From positions 1,550,001 to 1,614,000 of the forward strand of contig NZ_CP014945.1 in NCBI RefSeq assembly GCF_001606025.1: 64,000 bases of DNA, read 5' to 3'. Origin of the DNA: Psychrobacter alimentarius. GTDB taxonomy: Bacteria; Pseudomonadota; Gammaproteobacteria; Pseudomonadales; Moraxellaceae. The notes beneath the pieces are model-generated. The model did no database searches, had not been told where the DNA came from, and saw nothing but the letters and a program-made list of their open reading frames with translations. Both the position numbers and the translations under genes were made by a program. How positions within the stretch are numbered: the first letter of the stretch is position 1; each line of letters opens with the position of its first letter. Of the stretch, positions 56,313 to 63,777 are shown piece after piece.

Positions 56313-57992
56313 ATGAATAGTGCTATTGTACTGTTATTTGGCGTTGCCGCTATGCTATGCGGCTACTTGTTTTATTCAAAGTTTATCGCCACTAAAATTT
56401 TGGCATTAGACAACAGTCGTCCCACGCCAGCTCATACGATGAAAGATGGCGTAGATTACGTTCCCACCAATAAGTACGTATTATGGGGTCACCATTTTAC
56501 CTCAGTAGCAGGGGCAGCACCAATCATCGGTCCTGCTATTGCTGTGATCTGGGGCTGGGTGCCAGCCATCATTTGGGTAGTACTGGGCACCATTTTTATG
56601 GCTGGTGTCCACGATATGTCAGCCATTTGGGCAAGTATGCGTAATAAAGGCCAATCGATTGGTTCTATCGCTGGTACTGTAATGGGTACACGTGTGCGCA
56701 GTTTGATGATGATTGTCATTTTTTTACTCCTACTGATGGTAAACGCCGTATTCGGTGTTGCTATCGCTAATATGATGATAAAAACGCCTTCAGCGGTATT
56801 GCCTGTGTGGGGCGCACTCATTGTTGCCTTCATCATTGGTCAGTGTATCTATCGCTATAAGATGAATCTGCTTTGGGTATCAATCATTGGTGTCACGGCT
56901 TTATACGGACTTATTTATCTTGGCCCCATGTTCCCAATTGTGTTACCTGAGACTGTTTTCGGTTTGCCTGATAATGCCGTATGGATTCTGATTTTATTCG
57001 GTTATGCGGCAGTTGCGTCTTTATTGCCAGTATGGATGCTGCTGCAACCACGCGATTACATCAATGGCTTGCAGTTATTTGTCGGTTTGATTTTATTGTA
57101 CGCAGCCATTTTTATTGCGACGCCAGATATTGTCGCGCCAGCCATCAACACAGCATTACCCGTTGGCACACCGTCACTGATGCCATTGTTGTTTGTGACG
57201 ATTGCCTGCGGTGCTATTTCAGGCTTCCATGGATTGGTGGCAACAGGTACCACGTCCAAGCAGATTGATAAAGAAGAAGATGCTCGGTTCGTTGGTTACT
57301 TTGGTGCATTTGGTGAGGGTATGCTTGCGCTGGGTGCCATACTTGCTGCCACGGCAGGTTTTGCCACACTGGCTGATTGGCAAGCGGTTTATCAAAAATT
57401 CGGCGATGGTTCTATCGGTGCCTTTATTGATGGTGGCGCTACCATCCTAAATGCCGGGGTTGGCATTGACTTAGTGTTATCGCAAACGATGCTGACAGTC
57501 ATGGCAGCACTATTTGCCGGTACTACTATGGACACTGGGGTGCGTTTGCAGCGTTATATTTTTCAAGAGTTTGGAGAGTTTTATAACTTGCCAGCATTGA
57601 ACAAAGGGGTTGTCGCAACGTTACTTGCAGTCGGAAGCTGTTTGTTATTGGCGTTTGGCGCAGGTGGTATCGATGGTGCAGGCGGTATGATTATTTGGCC
57701 ACTATTTGGTACAACCAATCAATTAATGGCCGCATTGACCTTAATGATTGTCACCGTGATTTTATTACGTAAGGGCAAGCCTGTCTGGTATACCTTGGCA
57801 CCATTGACGTTCTTACTGGTCATGACGGTCTTCGCACTACTCATTCAGCTCAAAACTTTCTTCACTGATGGTAATTGGCTGCTCATCATTATGGATATCA
57901 TTATTTTGATAGCAACCATTTTGGTGACGTTTGAGAGTCTGTCGGTATTGCGCAAAGAATGGACAATACACAAAGGTAAAAGCGATACCTAA
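56313..57992 (+). CDS. cstA: CstA family carbon-starvation transporter
   Basis: A 559-residue polytopic membrane protein with about 15 segments, the short CstA form (Escherichia coli CstA has 701). Signatures include the conserved DGVDYVPTNKYVLWGHHFTS, VAGAAPIIGPAIAVIWGW, MAGVHDMSAIWASMRNKGQS, FHGLVATGTTSKQ, FAGTTMDTGVRLQRYIFQEF and WPLFGTTNQLMAALTLM. CstA proteins import pyruvate or peptides under carbon limitation. A GGGAGAGATAA sequence precedes the ATG. A terminator separates it from the small Cys-Cys protein and the ArsA-like gene downstream on the same strand. Confidence 0.94.
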   Translation: MNSAIVLLFGVAAMLCGYLFYSKFIATKILALDNSRPTPAHTMKDGVDYVPTNKYVLWGHHFTSVAGAAPIIGPAIAVIWGWVPAIIWVVLGTIFMAGVHDMSAIWASMRNKGQSIGSIAGTVMGTRVRSLMMIVIFLLLLMVNAVFGVAIANMMIKTPSAVLPVWGALIVAFIIGQCIYRYKMNLLWVSIIGVTALYGLIYLGPMFPIVLPETVFGLPDNAVWILILFGYAAVASLLPVWMLLQPRDYINGLQLFVGLILLYAAIFIATPDIVAPAINTALPVGTPSLMPLLFVTIACGAISGFHGLVATGTTSKQIDKEEDARFVGYFGAFGEGMLALGAILAATAGFATLADWQAVYQKFGDGSIGAFIDGGATILNAGVGIDLVLSQTMLTVMAALFAGTTMDTGVRLQRYIFQEFGEFYNLPALNKGVVATLLAVGSCLLLAFGAGGIDGAGGMIIWPLFGTTNQLMAALTLMIVTVILLRKGKPVWYTLAPLTFLLVMTVFALLIQLKTFFTDGNWLLIIMDIIILIATILVTFESLSVLRKEWTIHKGKSDT

Positions 57993-58020
57993 ACTCTATA
58001 AATAGTAAATGAAGCAAAAG

Positions 58021-58049
58021 AACGCTAGCAGCAATTGCTGGCGTTTTTT
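58021..58049 (+). terminator. Terminator after cstA
   Basis: ACGCTAGCA / TGCTGGCGT with one G-T pair and a short GCAAT loop region, followed by six T. It is 29 bases after the cstA stop and 68 bases before the next ATG, so the small Cys-Cys gene depends on read-through or its own promoter. Confidence 0.8.
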
Positions 58050-58116
58050 ATATCGTGTAGGCATGATAGATTAAAGATAAGTCAATGTAAAAAAACATGC
58101 AAGAGAACAGATAATT

Positions 58117-58410
58117 ATGGAAAATACAAATACACCAAAGGATCATGCAGATATAGAACCATGGTGGCAGCGCTTTGTGGCTGGGCTCAATGAGTTTTAT
58201 CATGCCCCTTATCGCCAAACGATGGCGCGCGCTGTCCGCGATGAAGAAGATTTTTTTATGCTGCTGCTGTTTGCCGAGAGTTTGGGGATTGATAATCCTG
58301 CCAGCTTTTATACTTTGGAGCTGCAACCACTATTTTTAGAGAATTTCCACGAATGGCATACACGCATGGGTATGGACAGATGTCCTTTTGATCATGTTGG
58401 TTGCTGTTAA
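58117..58410 (+). CDS. cory-CC-star-like small protein ending in Cys-Cys
   Basis: A 97-residue soluble protein. It has WWQRFVAGLNEFYHAPYRQT, the helix DEEDFFMLLLFAESLGID, NPASFYTLELQPLFLENFHE, and a C-terminus MGMDRCPFDHVGCC that stops directly after two cysteines (Cys89, 96, 97). This matches what I recall of the NCBI-named 'cory-CC-star' family. The acidic and His residues near the end plus three Cys suggest a metal or metalloid ligand or a redox site; that is inference. It precedes the ArsA-like ATPase by 38 bases and is probably co-transcribed with it. Confidence 0.75.
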   Translation: MENTNTPKDHADIEPWWQRFVAGLNEFYHAPYRQTMARAVRDEEDFFMLLLFAESLGIDNPASFYTLELQPLFLENFHEWHTRMGMDRCPFDHVGCC

Positions 58411-58448
58411 TTGCATCAACAACTGTTGTAAATTGATAAAAATGAGAA

Positions 58449-59486
58449 ATGAGTATGGCGTTACAACCTCTACCGACTCTAGTCGAACAATTAAAAACGC
58501 AGCCTATTATATTTATTGGTGGAAAGGGCGGTGTGGGCAAAACCACCACCGCTGCGGCACTTGCCAGCTATTATGCCAGCCAACACCAAAAGACGCTAAT
58601 TGTCTCAACCGATCCTGCCCACAGTTTGGGTGATGTACTGAACGTACAATTAACCAATGAAAAAATCGCGATCAATCCTTATCTGGATGCCATTGAGCTC
58701 AATCCTGATGTCATCGTTGACGCACATTTCGCTCAAGTTGAGCGTACGATAAAATCTTATGCCAATCCTGATATGATGCCAAAAATTCGTGAACATTTGC
58801 GTTTGTCAAAGTCAGCACCTGGCGCGCAAGAAGCCGCTATGCTTGAATCTATGTGTCAGCATTTGGTCACGGCAGCTGATGAACATTATGAGCATATTAT
58901 CTTTGACACAGCACCGACCGGACATACGCTACGGTTACTGGTATTACCAGAGATGATGGGCGCGTGGACGGATGGACTGCTTGCCCAGCAGCGCAGGCAA
59001 TCTAAGCTGCGCTCAGTATCACTACATTTGGATAATAGTGGTCAAAAAAGCCTCCAGCAAAAAAACGAGATTGCCAACCCATTTGCTCCAAAAAAACAAG
59101 ACCGCTGGGAGCAAGCCGTCTCTGTGCTAGAAAAGCGCAAACAGCTGTTTCGACAGGCAGGGGTACTGCTACATGATCGTACGCAGACCGCTATTGTATT
59201 GGTTATGACCGCTGATGTACTCCCATTGGCTGAGACCAAGCGCGCCATAGAACAGTTGGAAGAGAGTAAGCTCACGCCAGCTGCAATCGTCGTCAATCAG
59301 CTCATAGCACCAGCCCAATCTGATGCGTTTTGGCGTCATCGGGCTGATCGTCAGCAGCAATTGATGCAAGATATCGAAAATAATTTTTCTAAATATCCCT
59401 TGTATCCAATCTATCTACAACAAACCGATGTACGCGGTACGGACGCCTTGAGCAATTTATTAATCACTAGTTTGCGCGCTCATTAG
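58449..59486 (+). CDS. ArsA/Get3 (TRC40) family ATPase
   Basis: A 345-residue single-domain ATPase of the ArsA/Get3 family. The deviant Walker A GGKGGVGKTTTAAAL is at residues 24-38, the switch I region has STDPAHSLGDVLNV, and IIFDTAPTGHTLRLLVLPEM is switch II. PLAETKRAIEQLEE and the A-loop-like AIVVNQLIAP follow. It has one ATPase unit, not the two of plasmid ArsA, and I see no clear ArsA metalloid-binding Cys triad. No arsB, arsR or tail-anchored substrate gene is near, so arsenic resistance is not supported. Its 3' end overlaps the convergent DUF3482 gene by 20 bases. Confidence 0.93.
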   Translation: MSMALQPLPTLVEQLKTQPIIFIGGKGGVGKTTTAAALASYYASQHQKTLIVSTDPAHSLGDVLNVQLTNEKIAINPYLDAIELNPDVIVDAHFAQVERTIKSYANPDMMPKIREHLRLSKSAPGAQEAAMLESMCQHLVTAADEHYEHIIFDTAPTGHTLRLLVLPEMMGAWTDGLLAQQRRQSKLRSVSLHLDNSGQKSLQQKNEIANPFAPKKQDRWEQAVSVLEKRKQLFRQAGVLLHDRTQTAIVLVMTADVLPLAETKRAIEQLEESKLTPAAIVVNQLIAPAQSDAFWRHRADRQQQLMQDIENNFSKYPLYPIYLQQTDVRGTDALSNLLITSLRAH

Positions 59487-61140
59487 ATTGTAACTTTGCA
59501 GACAATGACCATGCCGTATCCGCTCGCAGCAGCTGTGCTTGTTCTGATTTACCACTACTAAGCGATGACCATTGCGGTTTGCCACGCGCTTTTTTTAACT
59601 CACTTGGCAATTTATGCGTGGGCCATGGCGTGATTGAGCGACTTGTTTCATCTGTACTATCATCGTTAGCTGCTGAGTCAGATGATTCAAAGGTTTTTGT
59701 CTCGCCTTTATATAAAAGCTGTGTCGCATCGGTTGCGGCATGTCCGCGATGGCGTAGGGCAGTGAGCAAGTCTATCGCACGCGTGGCGAGCAATGTCAGT
59801 GTTGCAGGATCAATGTATAAGCGTTTTACGCCCGTAATCTTGTCGGCAATACTGCTGGTGTTAGACAATAACCCGCCTGCGATACCGCCGATTGCCGCGC
59901 CCAGTCCTAGCGTTGTGCCCAATGCAGCAGCATCAATCCCCAATCCCAATAATGCACCAGCAGCAGCACCTGATGTGGTGCGAATGCCATAGCTTTTTAA
60001 AAGTTCAGGATCGAATGGATCTTGCTGATACGCTTGCAATTCAAGTGGGGTCGCTGCTACTGCATTGTCATAAAATTTGTATAAATTGAGCAGGCTGTGC
60101 TGCATGGTACGCTCGCTTTGTCTCACTGCTTCCTGCATTTGCTGTAACACAGGCATTGGGTCATCATCTTCGTCAATCTCACGTACAAAAGCGGCCACAT
60201 TCAACAAAAAATCTGCAATGATAATATTGGCCTCATCATGCAGTTGTGCCCAATTTTCAGCACGTTGCGCCATCAGTTGCTCAAGTCGCTCAGAGTGAGT
60301 GAGCATGGTGGCGAGGTTTTGCCATAAGCGCATTTCATCCTCAAACTCAAACGCCACCGAATCAAAGCGTGTTGAGATGTGCAGATTGCGTCTTGCCAGC
60401 ATGGTCTGCCAATCATCAATATTGGCATCTTGGCTGTCAGTGAAGTTAAATACAGGCATAACAGGAATGGCGGCCCAAGATAAAATCGCCAGCTCGTCTT
60501 TGTATTTACCCAGCACGGGCTCACGGGCATCGACGACATAAATCGCCATATCACTTGCCAGCAATTGCCGAACCACTTTGGCTTCTTGACTATAATCATA
60601 ACCTTGCGCGTCGTAACCATAAGCCGCACCATCATCTGACGCTTGGGCGATATCTGCTGCCAAAAACTGCTGTAAGCGCTCGATACCATCGCGGCGACTG
60701 GCAGTATTGTCTTCCAGCCAGTCCATCAGCCCTGAGGCATCCTCTAAACCAGGCGTATCGTATAAGGTTACCAGCACTTCACCGGTTTGACTGTCGGTCA
60801 GCTGGGCACGCTCAACATGCCGCGTGGTTGCCGCTTCATTTTTCACTTCACCAAAATAAACGTCTCGTAATAGGGTACGCAGGATGGAGGTTTTACCTGT
60901 GTTGGTGTGACCAACGACCGTCAGCTTTAGTGACTCACCACTCGCGATGGTTTTCTTAAGAGGCACAGTACTCGGGTCTGGCTCTTCACTTAATTTCTGT
61001 GGGTTTTGTGGGTGCGGTGCTGACTCAGCATTGATGATAGGCGCTGTTTCATAAGCCTTGTCGGCAAATAGACCCGCAGGTTTATTATTCTCACGATTGT
61101 CATAGCTATTATCGCGATTTTGTTTATTGTCATGGTTCAT
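59467..61140 (-). CDS. GTPase with DUF3482 domain
   Basis: A 557-residue protein. After a disordered, Asn/Pro-rich 70-residue start comes a TRAFAC-class G domain: P-loop VVGHTNTGKTSILRTLLRD at about 76-94, switch region ATTRHVERAQL, G3 motif LYDTPGLEDASG, and a possible G4-like VFNFTDSQD. Residues about 300-470 are the DUF3482 part, with the glycine-rich amphipathic hairpin AGALLGLGIDAAALGTTLGL and GGIAGGLLSNTSS that could insert into membrane. It is convergent with the ArsA-like gene. DUF3482 and DUF2868 genes commonly sit together, as here. Confidence 0.88.
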   Translation of the reverse strand: MNHDNKQNRDNSYDNRENNKPAGLFADKAYETAPIINAESAPHPQNPQKLSEEPDPSTVPLKKTIASGESLKLTVVGHTNTGKTSILRTLLRDVYFGEVKNEAATTRHVERAQLTDSQTGEVLVTLYDTPGLEDASGLMDWLEDNTASRRDGIERLQQFLAADIAQASDDGAAYGYDAQGYDYSQEAKVVRQLLASDMAIYVVDAREPVLGKYKDELAILSWAAIPVMPVFNFTDSQDANIDDWQTMLARRNLHISTRFDSVAFEFEDEMRLWQNLATMLTHSERLEQLMAQRAENWAQLHDEANIIIADFLLNVAAFVREIDEDDDPMPVLQQMQEAVRQSERTMQHSLLNLYKFYDNAVAATPLELQAYQQDPFDPELLKSYGIRTTSGAAAGALLGLGIDAAALGTTLGLGAAIGGIAGGLLSNTSSIADKITGVKRLYIDPATLTLLATRAIDLLTALRHRGHAATDATQLLYKGETKTFESSDSAANDDSTDETSRSITPWPTHKLPSELKKARGKPQWSSLSSGKSEQAQLLRADTAWSLSAKLQSNERAN

Positions 61141-61246
61141 ACTAGCGTCTTATATCAGTGAGTAACGTTCAAAAAGCATAAAAAACATAATAGTAGCTGT
61201 TTATGGTAAATAAGTCAGGCTTGGTATCGGTATTCATACACAATCG

Positions 61247-62233
61247 TCAATGGGTTTTAGACTCGGTAGCACTGGGCGGATAAAACAGCACTTTGAGTTT
61301 TTTCTTAATGCCTTTGACTCGAAAAAACCGTAGCCACATCCGGTAAAACACACCAAAAATTAAGCCGATAATATGATCATGACTGTCTTCACCAACGGCA
61401 CCATATTTTACCGGATTATTGACCGTGTCTTCCTCTACATACGTCCCAAACCATCGATCAAAAATAATGAGTACCCCGCCATAATTTTGATCAATGTACG
61501 CACCATTGGTACCATGATGAGCGCGATGATTGGATGGCGTGTCAAAAACATATTCAACCCATTTTGGGAATTTGCCCACTGTTTCGGTATGAATAAAAAA
61601 CTGGTAAATCAGATCTAACGCATAAAGGAAAAATACCCATACTGGATGTACGCCAAGTATCATCAGTGGTACAAAGAATACCCACCAACCGGTGACTGAA
61701 TACAAAAGGCTTTGGCGCATGGCGGTAGAGAGGTTCATATGGTCATCAGAATGATGCACGACATGGGCCGACCAAAACCAATTGACTCGATGTGAGGCGC
61801 GGTGAAACCAGTAATAGCTAAATTCAACCGCGATGAATATCGGAATGGCGGTCAGCAAGGTCACCTCAATAGTAAACAAGCGATATTGATATAACCACAA
61901 GCAAATAGGTAAAACGATGAGCGCTTGCACAATCAGCTCAAAACCCAAGTAAGAACCGCCTAAACTAAAATTGGTCATCGCACGGCGCCAGCTAAAGCTT
62001 TTGCCATTGCCACGCTTGGACTGATAAAACCACTCGGCTAAAAACAGCAGAAAAAAGGGCCCGCCAGCGAGCGGCAGTAACCATTCTTGCCAGTGCCCAG
62101 GTAAAATACTACTCAATATTGGCTGCCAAGATTCAGGAGAGATGGCCACTATATGCTGGTTCAACGTATTTTTATAGTCATCCAATATCTGACCGTACTG
62201 ACCTAGGGTCATAAGATTGTTATCTGCTGCCAT
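61247..62233 (-). CDS. Sterol desaturase/fatty acid hydroxylase family membrane enzyme
   Basis: A 328-residue membrane di-iron oxygenase. The His clusters are YYWFHRASHRVNWFW (HxxxH), WSAHVVHHSDDHMN (HxxHH) and PSNHRAHHGTN (HxxHH), as in the ERG3/FA hydroxylase superfamily. About five hydrophobic segments surround them. Bacterial members hydroxylate or cleave lipids. It sits between the DUF3482 and DUF2868 genes on the same strand, 106 and 134 bases from them; whether it is functionally tied to them is unknown. Confidence 0.92.
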   Translation of the reverse strand: MAADNNLMTLGQYGQILDDYKNTLNQHIVAISPESWQPILSSILPGHWQEWLLPLAGGPFFLLFLAEWFYQSKRGNGKSFSWRRAMTNFSLGGSYLGFELIVQALIVLPICLWLYQYRLFTIEVTLLTAIPIFIAVEFSYYWFHRASHRVNWFWSAHVVHHSDDHMNLSTAMRQSLLYSVTGWWVFFVPLMILGVHPVWVFFLYALDLIYQFFIHTETVGKFPKWVEYVFDTPSNHRAHHGTNGAYIDQNYGGVLIIFDRWFGTYVEEDTVNNPVKYGAVGEDSHDHIIGLIFGVFYRMWLRFFRVKGIKKKLKVLFYPPSATESKTH

Positions 62234-62367
62234 GCTGGACTCCTATCCACTATATCGTCAATGCACTATAAACATTCCTTGTTATGTCAGTATGATACTA
62301 AACTTATGAATCAGCATGGATAAAAATGGTGTTCTGTCAGTTCTTATCGGTGATATCAAAAAATTGT

Positions 62368-63777
62368 CTACAGGTTACGATCAACAACGGTACCACCAAC
62401 GTGACTGTCAGGATTGACAAGGCCTATTTTTCGAGCAGAAAGGGCGGTTTGCCACTGCTGATAACGCACGTTGTTAGGATCGTCTGGTGATATGGATATG
62501 TCAGCACCAATAGGACTACTTCCTAGTAATTGTACAATCAACCCCTCTGTCGCATGACTGGCGATTTGATCGAGCTTGCGAAGGGTACCACGGTCGGGCA
62601 GCGCGCTTTCATGAATGCCCAATAACACCTGTACCGGATGCCTGTCCAAATAAGACGTGAGCCTTGCCATATCATCACGGTCATCGATAATGCCAAAATT
62701 TTCGACCTCAAATTTATCATTGAAATGAGTATCCAAACCCAATTGCCACCAATCATCCTGATCTGATGGGTATTCAAGCAAGGCAACCAGTTTTTTGCCC
62801 GCACTGATCGTTGCTGTTGGCGCGATGGGCGCTGGTGCTTCTTTAAAATCATCGGCATCCACCACCTGACGCTGCCAAAAGTTCAAAATCTTTTGATAAT
62901 AGGGCAGTTTGATATCCAAGCGCATTTTTTTGCGGCGGAACATGAGCGCACAAAATGACCATGCAATCGCACGCGGCACGATACCGTACATCAGCAAGCT
63001 ACCGACAAGCAAACTTGCCCATTGACGCGCAACAGACAACGGCATCGCCTCTGTTACCAAGCGGCTTTGGACGATAGCAGTGCTGTCAGGAACCTCAAAT
63101 CCCACCATACTTGGCAACCAGCCAAGCACTCGCGTTAAGGTAATCAGCGCCTGATCAGAGAGTAAGGTGGACTCCCAGCTAAAGCTATATTGCCTTACCA
63201 CGAGCAAAAATATGATCGCAAAAAGCATGCCGGTTAACGTGGCGAGCCATAACTGGTGGCTGAACTTGCCCAAATACCATCGCATACCGCTGTGATACAA
63301 TTGGCGCTCATATAAATCAACGGCGGCGATAGTGACATCATCCTTGCCGCGTATAAGATAACTGGGACTCACGAAATTGGCGAACCAATTTGAGGATTGT
63401 TTGCCTTGATTGATGAGTGCCATTACCAGCCAGCCGACCAGCATCAGGGTATGAAACCCCAGCAAGCAGACCAACACATAAAAGAAATTCACCACATTGC
63501 TCTGTAATAAGGTGAATAGTCCTAAAAACCCTGAAACACACCACAAGATGCTCATGACAATCATGATGCCTTTGATACGACCGTCAATCTTACCGAGCAC
63601 CCGTGCCAATGCACCATTGCTATCAATACGCGCGGCGCGGCGATGCAACTTTTGGAGGGGCTTGCCGTCTTCATTTTTTAGCTTTTCCGTGATGAGTAGC
63701 GGATCAGTGGCAAAGACGTATTGCTCAGTCTCAAGCGTGCGTACCAGCTCAGTCAATTGGTCTTGGGGGGATAGCAT
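62368..63777 (-). CDS. DUF2868 membrane protein
   Basis: A 469-residue protein of the DUF2868 family. After a soluble 65-residue start, membrane helices appear near residues 70-95 (IMIVMSILWCVSGFLGLF), 95-120, 175-195 and 255-280. The region RRAARIDSNGALARVLGKID is a good family marker. The C-terminal 190 residues are soluble, including LVALLEYPSDQDDWWQLGLD and PVQVLLGIHESALPDRGTL, which resembles a small alpha/beta domain. DUF2868 partners DUF3482 GTPases in many Gammaproteobacteria; function unknown. Confidence 0.85.
   Translation of the reverse strand: MLSPQDQLTELVRTLETEQYVFATDPLLITEKLKNEDGKPLQKLHRRAARIDSNGALARVLGKIDGRIKGIMIVMSILWCVSGFLGLFTLLQSNVVNFFYVLVCLLGFHTLMLVGWLVMALINQGKQSSNWFANFVSPSYLIRGKDDVTIAAVDLYERQLYHSGMRWYLGKFSHQLWLATLTGMLFAIIFLLVVRQYSFSWESTLLSDQALITLTRVLGWLPSMVGFEVPDSTAIVQSRLVTEAMPLSVARQWASLLVGSLLMYGIVPRAIAWSFCALMFRRKKMRLDIKLPYYQKILNFWQRQVVDADDFKEAPAPIAPTATISAGKKLVALLEYPSDQDDWWQLGLDTHFNDKFEVENFGIIDDRDDMARLTSYLDRHPVQVLLGIHESALPDRGTLRKLDQIASHATEGLIVQLLGSSPIGADISISPDDPNNVRYQQWQTALSARKIGLVNPDSHVGGTVVDRNL

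What the first reader, a model, noticed from the sequence alone, without database searches (positions are those of the whole stretch)
58117..63777. cstA / Cys-Cys small protein / ArsA-like ATPase next to a DUF3482-desaturase-DUF2868 block
Seen: a carbon-starvation transporter, a 97-residue protein ending RCPFDHVGCC, and a single-unit ArsA/Get3 ATPase in one direction, facing a GTPase-desaturase-DUF2868 block whose 3' end overlaps the ATPase gene. Known: ArsA/Get3 ATPases move metalloids or tail-anchored proteins. No ars genes are present and there is no double-ATPase ArsA. Inference: the Cys-Cys protein may be the cargo, metal carrier or adaptor of this ATPase, and the pair may insert or mature a membrane protein, perhaps CstA itself. 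The membrane-linked GTPase block may be a separate unit or part of the same envelope process.
Basis: partly seen in the sequence, partly recalled or inferred. Interest (0 to 1): 0.7.

Follow-up and report, generated by a model that had tools for sequence, protein, structure and literature searches.

The report
CstA transporter with dedicated Cys-tail ATPase module
A carbon-starvation-type nutrient importer sits in one gene cassette with a small protein ending in two cysteines and an ATPase that seem to serve it; the association was published in 2010, but what the two helpers do is still open and can be tested.

Summary
cstA (56313-57992), a 97-aa protein (58117-58410; NCBIfam NF041419 'cory-CC-star') and a single-domain ArsA/Get3-type ATPase gene (58449-59486) form a conserved module in a Psychrobacter-like genome. 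The order holds in 109 of 110 loci, in distant Proteobacteria and in three plasmid loci read, one from Bacillota. In 321 genomes of the class, cory over cut-off occurs only with CstA (8 of 8), 7 of 8 genomes with a strong single-domain ArsA have cory, and none has both cory and the other CC-ending partner family, YbdD/YjiX. Five of five cory-less Psychrobacter lack CstA; three show an empty site with the GTPase block in place, so that block is separate. The association is not new: Castillo and Saier (2010) described cstA-cstX-arsA. Beyond the parts of that paper I read: the invariant HxWHxR...P...CC end, no membrane span, exclusion with YbdD, and a CstA lineage nested in the cory clade without the helpers. 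Best reading: Cory is an accessory arm of CstA handled by the ATPase. Arsenic export and tail-anchored insertion are disfavoured. No mechanism is shown.

The parts
56313..57992 (+). cstA, short-type CstA family transporter, 559 aa
   Evidence: PF02554 E 9.1e-136; NCBIfam equivalog NF011590 (CstA) 238.7 bits, below its cut-off of 1188; placed with the cory-linked CstA rows
58017..58049 (+). terminator-like hairpin running into a T run, between cstA and cory
   Evidence: 71-nt fold -19.8 kcal/mol, z -3.8; a hairpin plus T run within 200 nt upstream of cory in 59 of 71 loci with full flank, no shuffled control run for this count; the simple terminator scan did not list it
58117..58410 (+). cory (probably CstX of Castillo and Saier 2010): 97-aa predicted helical hairpin with a tail ending Cys-Cys
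   Evidence: NF041419 E 2.7e-38, 129.8 bits, cut-off 80; conservation n=80; AlphaFold2 pLDDT 81.0, pTM 0.55
58449..59486 (+). arsA-like single-domain ATPase, 345 aa
   Evidence: PF02374 E 2.9e-66; TIGR00345 227.5 bits, cut-off 135; P-loop GKGGVGKT and DTAPTGHT intact, no CxxC
59467..61140 (-). DUF3482 GTPase: neighbour, not part of the module
   Evidence: PF11981 E 4e-73; in place in Psychrobacter genomes that lack the triad
61247..62233 (-). fatty-acid-hydroxylase family protein: neighbour, variable
   Evidence: PF04116 E 7.5e-28; no match in 35 of 67 loci over 11 kb that have both GTPase and DUF2868
62368..63777 (-). DUF2868 protein: neighbour, not part of the module
   Evidence: PF11067 E 1.6e-61; in place where the triad is missing

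Best explanation
The locus is a three-gene module: a CstA-family importer and two proteins dedicated to it. SHOWN by comparison: cory was found only in genomes that have CstA (where CstA was looked for), the set is present or absent together in Psychrobacter, cory and arsA are often translationally coupled by overlap, and cory-linked and YbdD-linked CstA belong to different parts of the CstA tree. INFERRED: Cory is a soluble accessory arm of CstA. Its invariant HxWHxR...P...CC end carries the chemistry (a thiol/disulfide switch or a bound metal), as was suggested for the Cys-Cys or Cys-Sec end of YbdD/DUF466 proteins. The ATPase, probably a homodimer, binds Cory and uses ATP to deliver it to CstA, or release it, and so matures or switches the transporter. 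The transporter itself most likely remains a secondary symporter for pyruvate or a similar small nutrient (by family; E. coli CstA from PMC5847655).
For: Order cstA>cory>arsA on one strand in 109 of 110 loci, in 6 of the 7 further class-sample genomes with cory, in 3 of 3 more genomes and in the 3 plasmid loci read out of 6 records. In 321 genomes cory over cut-off goes with CstA in 8 of 8 (p 2.5e-7); 7 of 8 genomes with a single-domain ArsA match at E below 1e-40 have cory (p about 1e-12); among 51 CstA genomes 8 have cory, 28 have PF04328 and none has both over cut-off (p 8e-4) (genomes treated as independent, E limit set after seeing the list). In the first CstA tree the 19 cory-linked and the 30 YbdD-linked rows each lie on one side of one branch. 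5 of 5 Psychrobacter without cory lack CstA and 5 of 5 tested with cory have it; three have an empty site. Pairwise distances of CstA, Cory and ArsA correlate over 18 triads (r 0.75, 0.63, 0.59; 0 of 2000 permutations as high). In 12 of these 18 the arsA frame opens inside, or its ATG overlaps, the end of cory. 170 of 173 listed Cory relatives end CC; H78, W80, H81, R83 and P90 are 80 of 80 in a thinned set. In E. coli, pyruvate uptake fell to 13% without cstA and 20% without ybdD (PMC5847655, passages). A terminal Cys-Sec in DUF466 was taken to suggest redox activity (PMC4607533, passages).
Against: No interaction, metal or redox state was measured and no complex was modelled. Cory and YbdD show no sequence relationship (hhalign probability 0.8%), so carrying over from YbdD is analogy only. 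A CstA lineage nested inside the cory clade (G634, G387, G645; family f161) has no cory or ArsA match in the stretches read and no cory in the genome, so this kind of CstA can exist without them. G226 has cstA and cory but no strong ArsA match. One single-domain ArsA genome (G190) has no CstA. In L015/L051 (one contig) the ArsA match covers only 185 of 345 residues and in L033 it falls in two frames. The published alternative, that ATP hydrolysis drives CstA transport, is not excluded.
Confidence: 0.5

Rival explanations
1. ATP-energised transport: the ATPase stays on CstA through Cory as a linker and ATP hydrolysis powers the uptake itself, as ArsA does for ArsB. This is the proposal of Castillo and Saier (2010).
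For: Published coevolution argument and shared operons (PMC2963123); the ATPase keeps intact nucleotide motifs.
Against: CstA relatives occur without an ArsA: no ArsA match in the YbdD-type stretches read or in the f161 stretches; E. coli BtsT is described as an H+/pyruvate symporter (abstract listing), although a P-loop GTPase gene, yjiA, follows btsT-yjiX there.
Confidence: 0.2
2. Thiol sensor: Cory is a redox-responsive regulator that opens or closes CstA by a Cys-Cys disulfide, and the ATPase only recycles it.
For: Near-invariant terminal CC; Cys-Sec end in DUF466 proteins taken as redox-active (PMC4607533). One plasmid locus has ahpC/ahpF upstream and another has sulfur-transfer genes downstream, which may be coincidence.
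Against: The tail's His, Trp, Arg and Pro are as invariant as its cysteines, which suits a metal site or a docking motif equally well. No search for redox partners was made.
Confidence: 0.15
3. Get3-like targeting: the ATPase inserts CstA or another membrane protein and Cory is its adaptor.
For: The ATPase is over the TIGR00345 (TRC40/GET3/ArsA) cut-off and matches algal ArsA1 and archaeal Get3-like chains.
Against: No CxxC in 18 of 18 triad ATPases checked; the stretch after the conserved Trp is polar, mean hydropathy -0.89 (n=18) against -0.19 in the one archaeal protein compared; Cory has no membrane span; CstA is polytopic, not tail-anchored.
Confidence: 0.1
4. Arsenic or metalloid export ATPase.
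For: Family name only.
Against: Single domain, no conserved cysteine, no ars family among the eight neighbouring proteins scanned; [quoted passage not shown]
Confidence: 0.02

Closest known systems
cstA-cstX-arsA operons of Castillo and Saier 2010 (PMC2963123)
   Same: Transporter, ~90-aa protein and single-domain ArsA in one operon; CstX never found without CstA. Their ArsA cluster 18 lists Psychrobacter arcticus 273-4 and Psychrobacter sp. PRwf-1; four of its seven members were found in SEED, all in such operons (which four is not said in what I read)
   Different: They describe archaeal CstX as a single-TMS protein; Cory here has no membrane span by hydropathy. YbdD, YjiX and Cys-Cys do not occur in that text. 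That CstX equals Cory is inferred from position, size and genus, not from sequence
cory-CC-star protein (NCBIfam NF041419)
   Same: Full-length match over cut-off; 170 of 173 listed relatives end CC
   Different: Nothing; it is a member. The one-line model description seen gives no function
CstA-YbdD and BtsT-YjiX-YjiA of Escherichia coli K-12
   Same: CstA-family importer followed by a small protein ending Cys-Cys; btsT-yjiX is also followed by a P-loop GTPase gene
   Different: Other part of the CstA tree and longer CstA; YbdD unrelated to Cory by profile; no cobW match within 10 kb of PF04328 in the 29 sample genomes that have it, so the GTPase parallel is not general
Get3/TRC40 and double-domain ArsA
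   Same: Family profile and nucleotide motifs
   Different: No CxxC, no conserved cysteines, polar client-region stretch, single domain

Membership tests
cory-CC-star (NF041419) | Score over the curated cut-off | tested here: met
   129.8 bits against 80
cory-CC-star (NF041419) | Terminal Cys-Cys | tested here: met
   Ends GCC; 170 of 173 listed relatives end CC
CstX of cstA-cstX-arsA operons | About 90 aa, with cstA and a single-domain arsA in one operon | tested here: met
   PMC2963123
CstX of cstA-cstX-arsA operons | Sequence identity with the published CstX proteins | not testable with these tools
   Their CstX sequences were not in the text seen
CstX of cstA-cstX-arsA operons | Single transmembrane segment | tested here: not met
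   Highest 19-residue mean hydropathy 1.17 in the window protein; highest 1.60 over 173 relatives. The published statement concerned archaeal cluster 14
YbdD/YjiX (PF04328, KCU-star NF033934) | Profile match or profile-profile relationship | tested here: not met
   No PF04328 match in the own genome; no NF033934 match; hhalign probability 0.8%
CstA family (PF02554) | Pfam gathering score | tested here: met
   454.2 bits against 27
CstA pyruvate/proton symporter equivalog (NF011590) | Equivalog cut-off | tested here: not met
   238.7 bits against 1188
TRC40/GET3/ArsA ATPase (TIGR00345) | Score over cut-off; Walker A and switch motifs | tested here: met
   227.5 against 135; motifs
Get3 tail-anchored targeting factor | CxxC zinc motif (recalled as a mark of eukaryotic Get3) | tested here: not met
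   Absent in 18 of 18 triad ATPases checked, window included
Get3 tail-anchored targeting factor | Hydrophobic client groove | tested here: inconclusive
   Stretch polar, mean -0.89, n=18, against one archaeal protein at -0.19; no structure model of the ATPase was made
ArsA arsenite pump ATPase | Two ATPase domains, arsenite cysteines, ars genes | tested here: not met
   345 aa, one domain; one cysteine, not conserved; no ars family among eight neighbouring proteins scanned

The most novel reading that the evidence does not exclude
CstA-family importers need a detachable terminal Cys-Cys arm, which has arisen twice from unrelated proteins: YbdD/KCU-star in one CstA clade and Cory in the other. 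In the Cory clade a Get3-type ATPase has become a dedicated loader for this arm, a role for Get3/ArsA ATPases distinct from metalloid export and tail-anchored protein delivery: ATP-controlled assembly, or redox or metal loading, of a secondary transporter's soluble subunit.
Probability: 0.3. Interest if true: 0.72.

Novelty: new member of a known kind. Interest (0 to 1): 0.45.

Why it matters
It gives a compact, testable system for a question open since at least 2010: what a Get3/ArsA-type ATPase does for a CstA transporter. The exclusion with YbdD and the natural absence of the helpers in one lineage supply ready controls. It also ties the unexplained Cys-Cys (or Cys-Sec) ends of two unrelated small protein families to one transporter family.

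Tried and rejected
GTPase/hydroxylase/DUF2868 block as part of the process: rejected. Homology of Cory with YbdD: none found (the Cory alignment was narrow, Neff 1.8). G3E GTPase next to YbdD as a general parallel to ArsA: seen in E. coli K-12, but no cobW match lies within 10 kb of PF04328 in the 29 sample genomes. Solved relatives of CstA and Cory by sequence: none. Fold search of the first Cory model: one match, E 8.6; for the second model Foldseek had no chain for the VIA second look. CstA positions that separate cory-linked from cory-less members: only Y180 stands out (Tyr in 19 of 19, Lys in 3 of 3 of f161, but Tyr also in 10 of 12 of the separate cory-less clade); weak. CC-ending small ORFs beside CstA without cory: none convincing.

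The first CstA tree suggested one cory clade. After 14 more neighbourhoods three cory-less rows fell inside it, so the claim was reduced. Rows: CstA pieces under 450 aa and the loci L191, L195 and L223 were left out of both trees; G229 and G255 were not fetched; the second tree kept 6 of 30 YbdD rows. The YbdD label is by genome; in G084 and G192 the PF04328 match is not next to the CstA used.
Full report
What is there. The window lies in a Psychrobacter-like genome: of 80 named records found by the small protein, 75 are Psychrobacter. On the plus strand are cstA (56313-57992), a 97-aa ORF (58117-58410) and a single-domain ArsA-type ATPase gene (58449-59486). The ORF is a member of NCBIfam NF041419 'cory-CC-star protein' (129.8 bits, cut-off 80). 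The ATPase is over the cut-off of TIGR00345 (TRC40/GET3/ArsA). On the minus strand are a DUF3482 GTPase, a PF04116 fatty-acid-hydroxylase family protein and a DUF2868 protein. The GTPase ORF overlaps arsA by 20 bases.

Neighbourhood in near relatives. In 110 loci fetched by cory (30, 80, partly the same organisms), the order cstA>cory>arsA on one strand holds in 109. In the exception, L106 (genome G656), CstA lies about 8 kb upstream of cory on the same strand, judged from coordinates that coincide with those of G023. Cory is in 31 of 36 genomes of the genus (own included) and in 0 of 21 others. CstA was tested in 10 of the 36: the five without cory lack CstA (one of them, G014, is 83% complete) and the five with cory have it.

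Empty site. Four of the five cory-less genomes were searched for the flanking genes. In G004, G025 and G028 the order is HGPRT, a 223-aa protein gene, DUF3482 GTPase, DUF2868, with about 60-120 bases between the 223-aa gene and the GTPase gene and no match to cstA, cory or arsA. In G021 other genes lie between. So the triad is present or absent as one unit, and the GTPase block is independent of it. The block was not matched in the five loci from other genera. The hydroxylase gene is variable: no match in 35 of 67 loci that have both GTPase and DUF2868.

Class-wide survey. One sample of 321 genomes of the class (Gammaproteobacteria, recalled) was searched with four families. CstA is in 51. Cory is at E up to 1e-3 in 9 and over cut-off in 8, own genome included. 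PF04328 (YbdD/YjiX) is in 29, of which 28 have CstA. Single-domain ArsA matches with E below 1e-40 are in 8 genomes: seven of the cory genomes, and G190; the other matches of that strength lie in double-domain proteins. The 8 cory genomes have CstA frames of 559-607 aa. The PF04328 genomes have frames of 691-776 aa, except G367 (613, at a contig end). No genome has cory and PF04328 both over cut-off; G367 has PF04328 and a sub-threshold cory match. Fifteen CstA genomes have neither, several as fragments. Chance figures are; they treat genomes as independent, which they are not, and the ArsA limit was set after seeing the list. G226 has cstA and cory but no strong ArsA match; its ORF downstream of cory has no family match over cut-off.

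Wider spread. In a 299-genome phylum sample cory is in 6, three of them new (G552, G568, G655), each with the triad. In the same sample CstA is in 156, so most CstA there goes without cory. Plasmid records with cory: 6 (Paracoccus 1, Pseudochrobactrum 4, Cytobacillus 1). The three read (L245, L246, L247) each carry 'carbon starvation protein A', 'cory-CC-star protein' and 'ArsA family ATPase'; in Cytobacillus a 95-aa ORF without a family match sits between cstA and cory. Of 14 control genomes only Haloferax volcanii gave a cory match, below cut-off.

Evolution. A tree of 59 CstA proteins puts the 19 cory-linked ones on one side of a branch (97/86) and the 30 YbdD-linked ones on one side of another (100/100). 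After adding 14 short CstA proteins without cory, chosen by me from the 156 CstA genomes, a lineage of three (f161: G634, G387, G645) sits inside the cory clade without cory or ArsA in the stretches read, and no cory was found in those genomes. Ten of the 14, with two from the class sample, form a separate clade; one more (L259) falls elsewhere. So cory goes with CstA, but this kind of CstA does not always go with cory. Long branches are present and some joins may be false. Distances between the three proteins correlate over 18 triads. In 12 of these 18 the arsA frame opens within the Cys-Cys codons of cory or its ATG overlaps the stop, which suggests translational coupling (start codons are inferred). 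In this window there is instead a gap of 38 bases, and a terminator-like hairpin stands between cstA and cory (58017-58049), with a similar feature in 59 of 71 loci (no shuffled control). This may set a lower dose of the two helpers.

Proteins. The two protein searches found 155 and 2486 relatives and listed the best 120 of each, so the 173 sequences used are biased to close ones. Of these 170 end CC. In a thinned set of 80, P31, R33, E54, G57, N60, E68, H78, W80, H81, R83 and P90 are 80 of 80 and C96 and C97 are 78 of 80. In the wider set (81 sequences) R83 is 90% or more, not invariant; the Bacillota protein has Asp at position 54 and L230 lacks N60. AlphaFold2 gives a helical hairpin with a non-helical tail (pLDDT 81.0, pTM 0.55). 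Hydropathy shows no clear membrane span. Profile comparison with YbdD finds no relationship, although 29 of the 31 YbdD-family rows gathered end CC (L146 ends CPC, L141 is truncated). In 18 triad ATPases the P-loop and switch motifs are kept (GKGGVGKS in L247), CxxC is absent and no cysteine is conserved; the stretch compared with the Get3 client region is polar.

Literature. The library held nothing for 'cory-CC-star' or for 'ArsA family ATPase' with 'carbon starvation protein'. A search for ArsA, CstA and ATPase found Castillo and Saier 2010 (PMC2963123). I saw the abstract, section 3.2, the tables and passages of the rest. They report 26 cstA-arsA associations, 24 with cstX, CstX never without CstA, coevolving trees, and a proposal that CstX links CstA transport to ATP hydrolysis. 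Two Psychrobacter ATPases are in their cluster 18; [quoted passage not shown] YbdD and YjiX do not occur in that text. The ybdD evidence in E. coli is from passages of PMC5847655. The Cys-Sec end of DUF466 and its suggested redox role are from passages of PMC4607533; the KCU-star entry is from a passage of PMC13188914. A word search of PMC7730263 found no ybdD. E. coli YbdD and YjiX match KCU-star (NF033934) below its cut-off.

Interpretation. The direction of dependence, the exclusion with YbdD and the invariant tail point to Cory as an accessory of CstA and to the ATPase as its handler. Which chemistry the tail carries, and whether ATP drives assembly, switching or transport itself, is not decided by sequence. 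I commit to assembly or switching at 0.5.

Verdict.

Noticed in passing
57990-58060: Strong hairpin with T run between cstA and cory, with a similar feature in 59 of 71 loci, although the genes otherwise look like one operon.
   Followed up: partly
L188:5944-6144: YbdD-type protein of a genome in the same family as the window's (G063) ends RCPC instead of RCC.
   Followed up: no
L015, L051, L033: ArsA match covers 185 of 345 residues in L015/L051 and falls in two frames in L033, while cstA and cory are matched; possible decay of the ATPase gene.
   Followed up: partly
L260, L261, L262: CstA lineage (f161) nested in the cory clade without cory or arsA nearby; CstA Y180 is Lys there and Tyr in 19 of 19 cory-linked ones.
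   Followed up: partly
L281:385-2533: The 223-aa protein gene occurs twice, on both sides of HGPRT, and other genes fill the triad site in G021.
   Followed up: no
58117-58410: The protein database lists PF25952 for the Cory relatives shown, but the Pfam copy scanned here gave no family for the window protein or two relatives; some sources name Cory 'DNA helicase'.
   Followed up: no
L247:5675-5962: 95-aa ORF of no known family between cstA and cory on the Cytobacillus plasmid.
   Followed up: partly
L246:618-2829 and L247:8825-12243: ahpC/ahpF upstream of the triad on a Pseudochrobactrum plasmid, and TusA-type sulfur-transfer genes downstream of it on the Cytobacillus plasmid.
   Followed up: no
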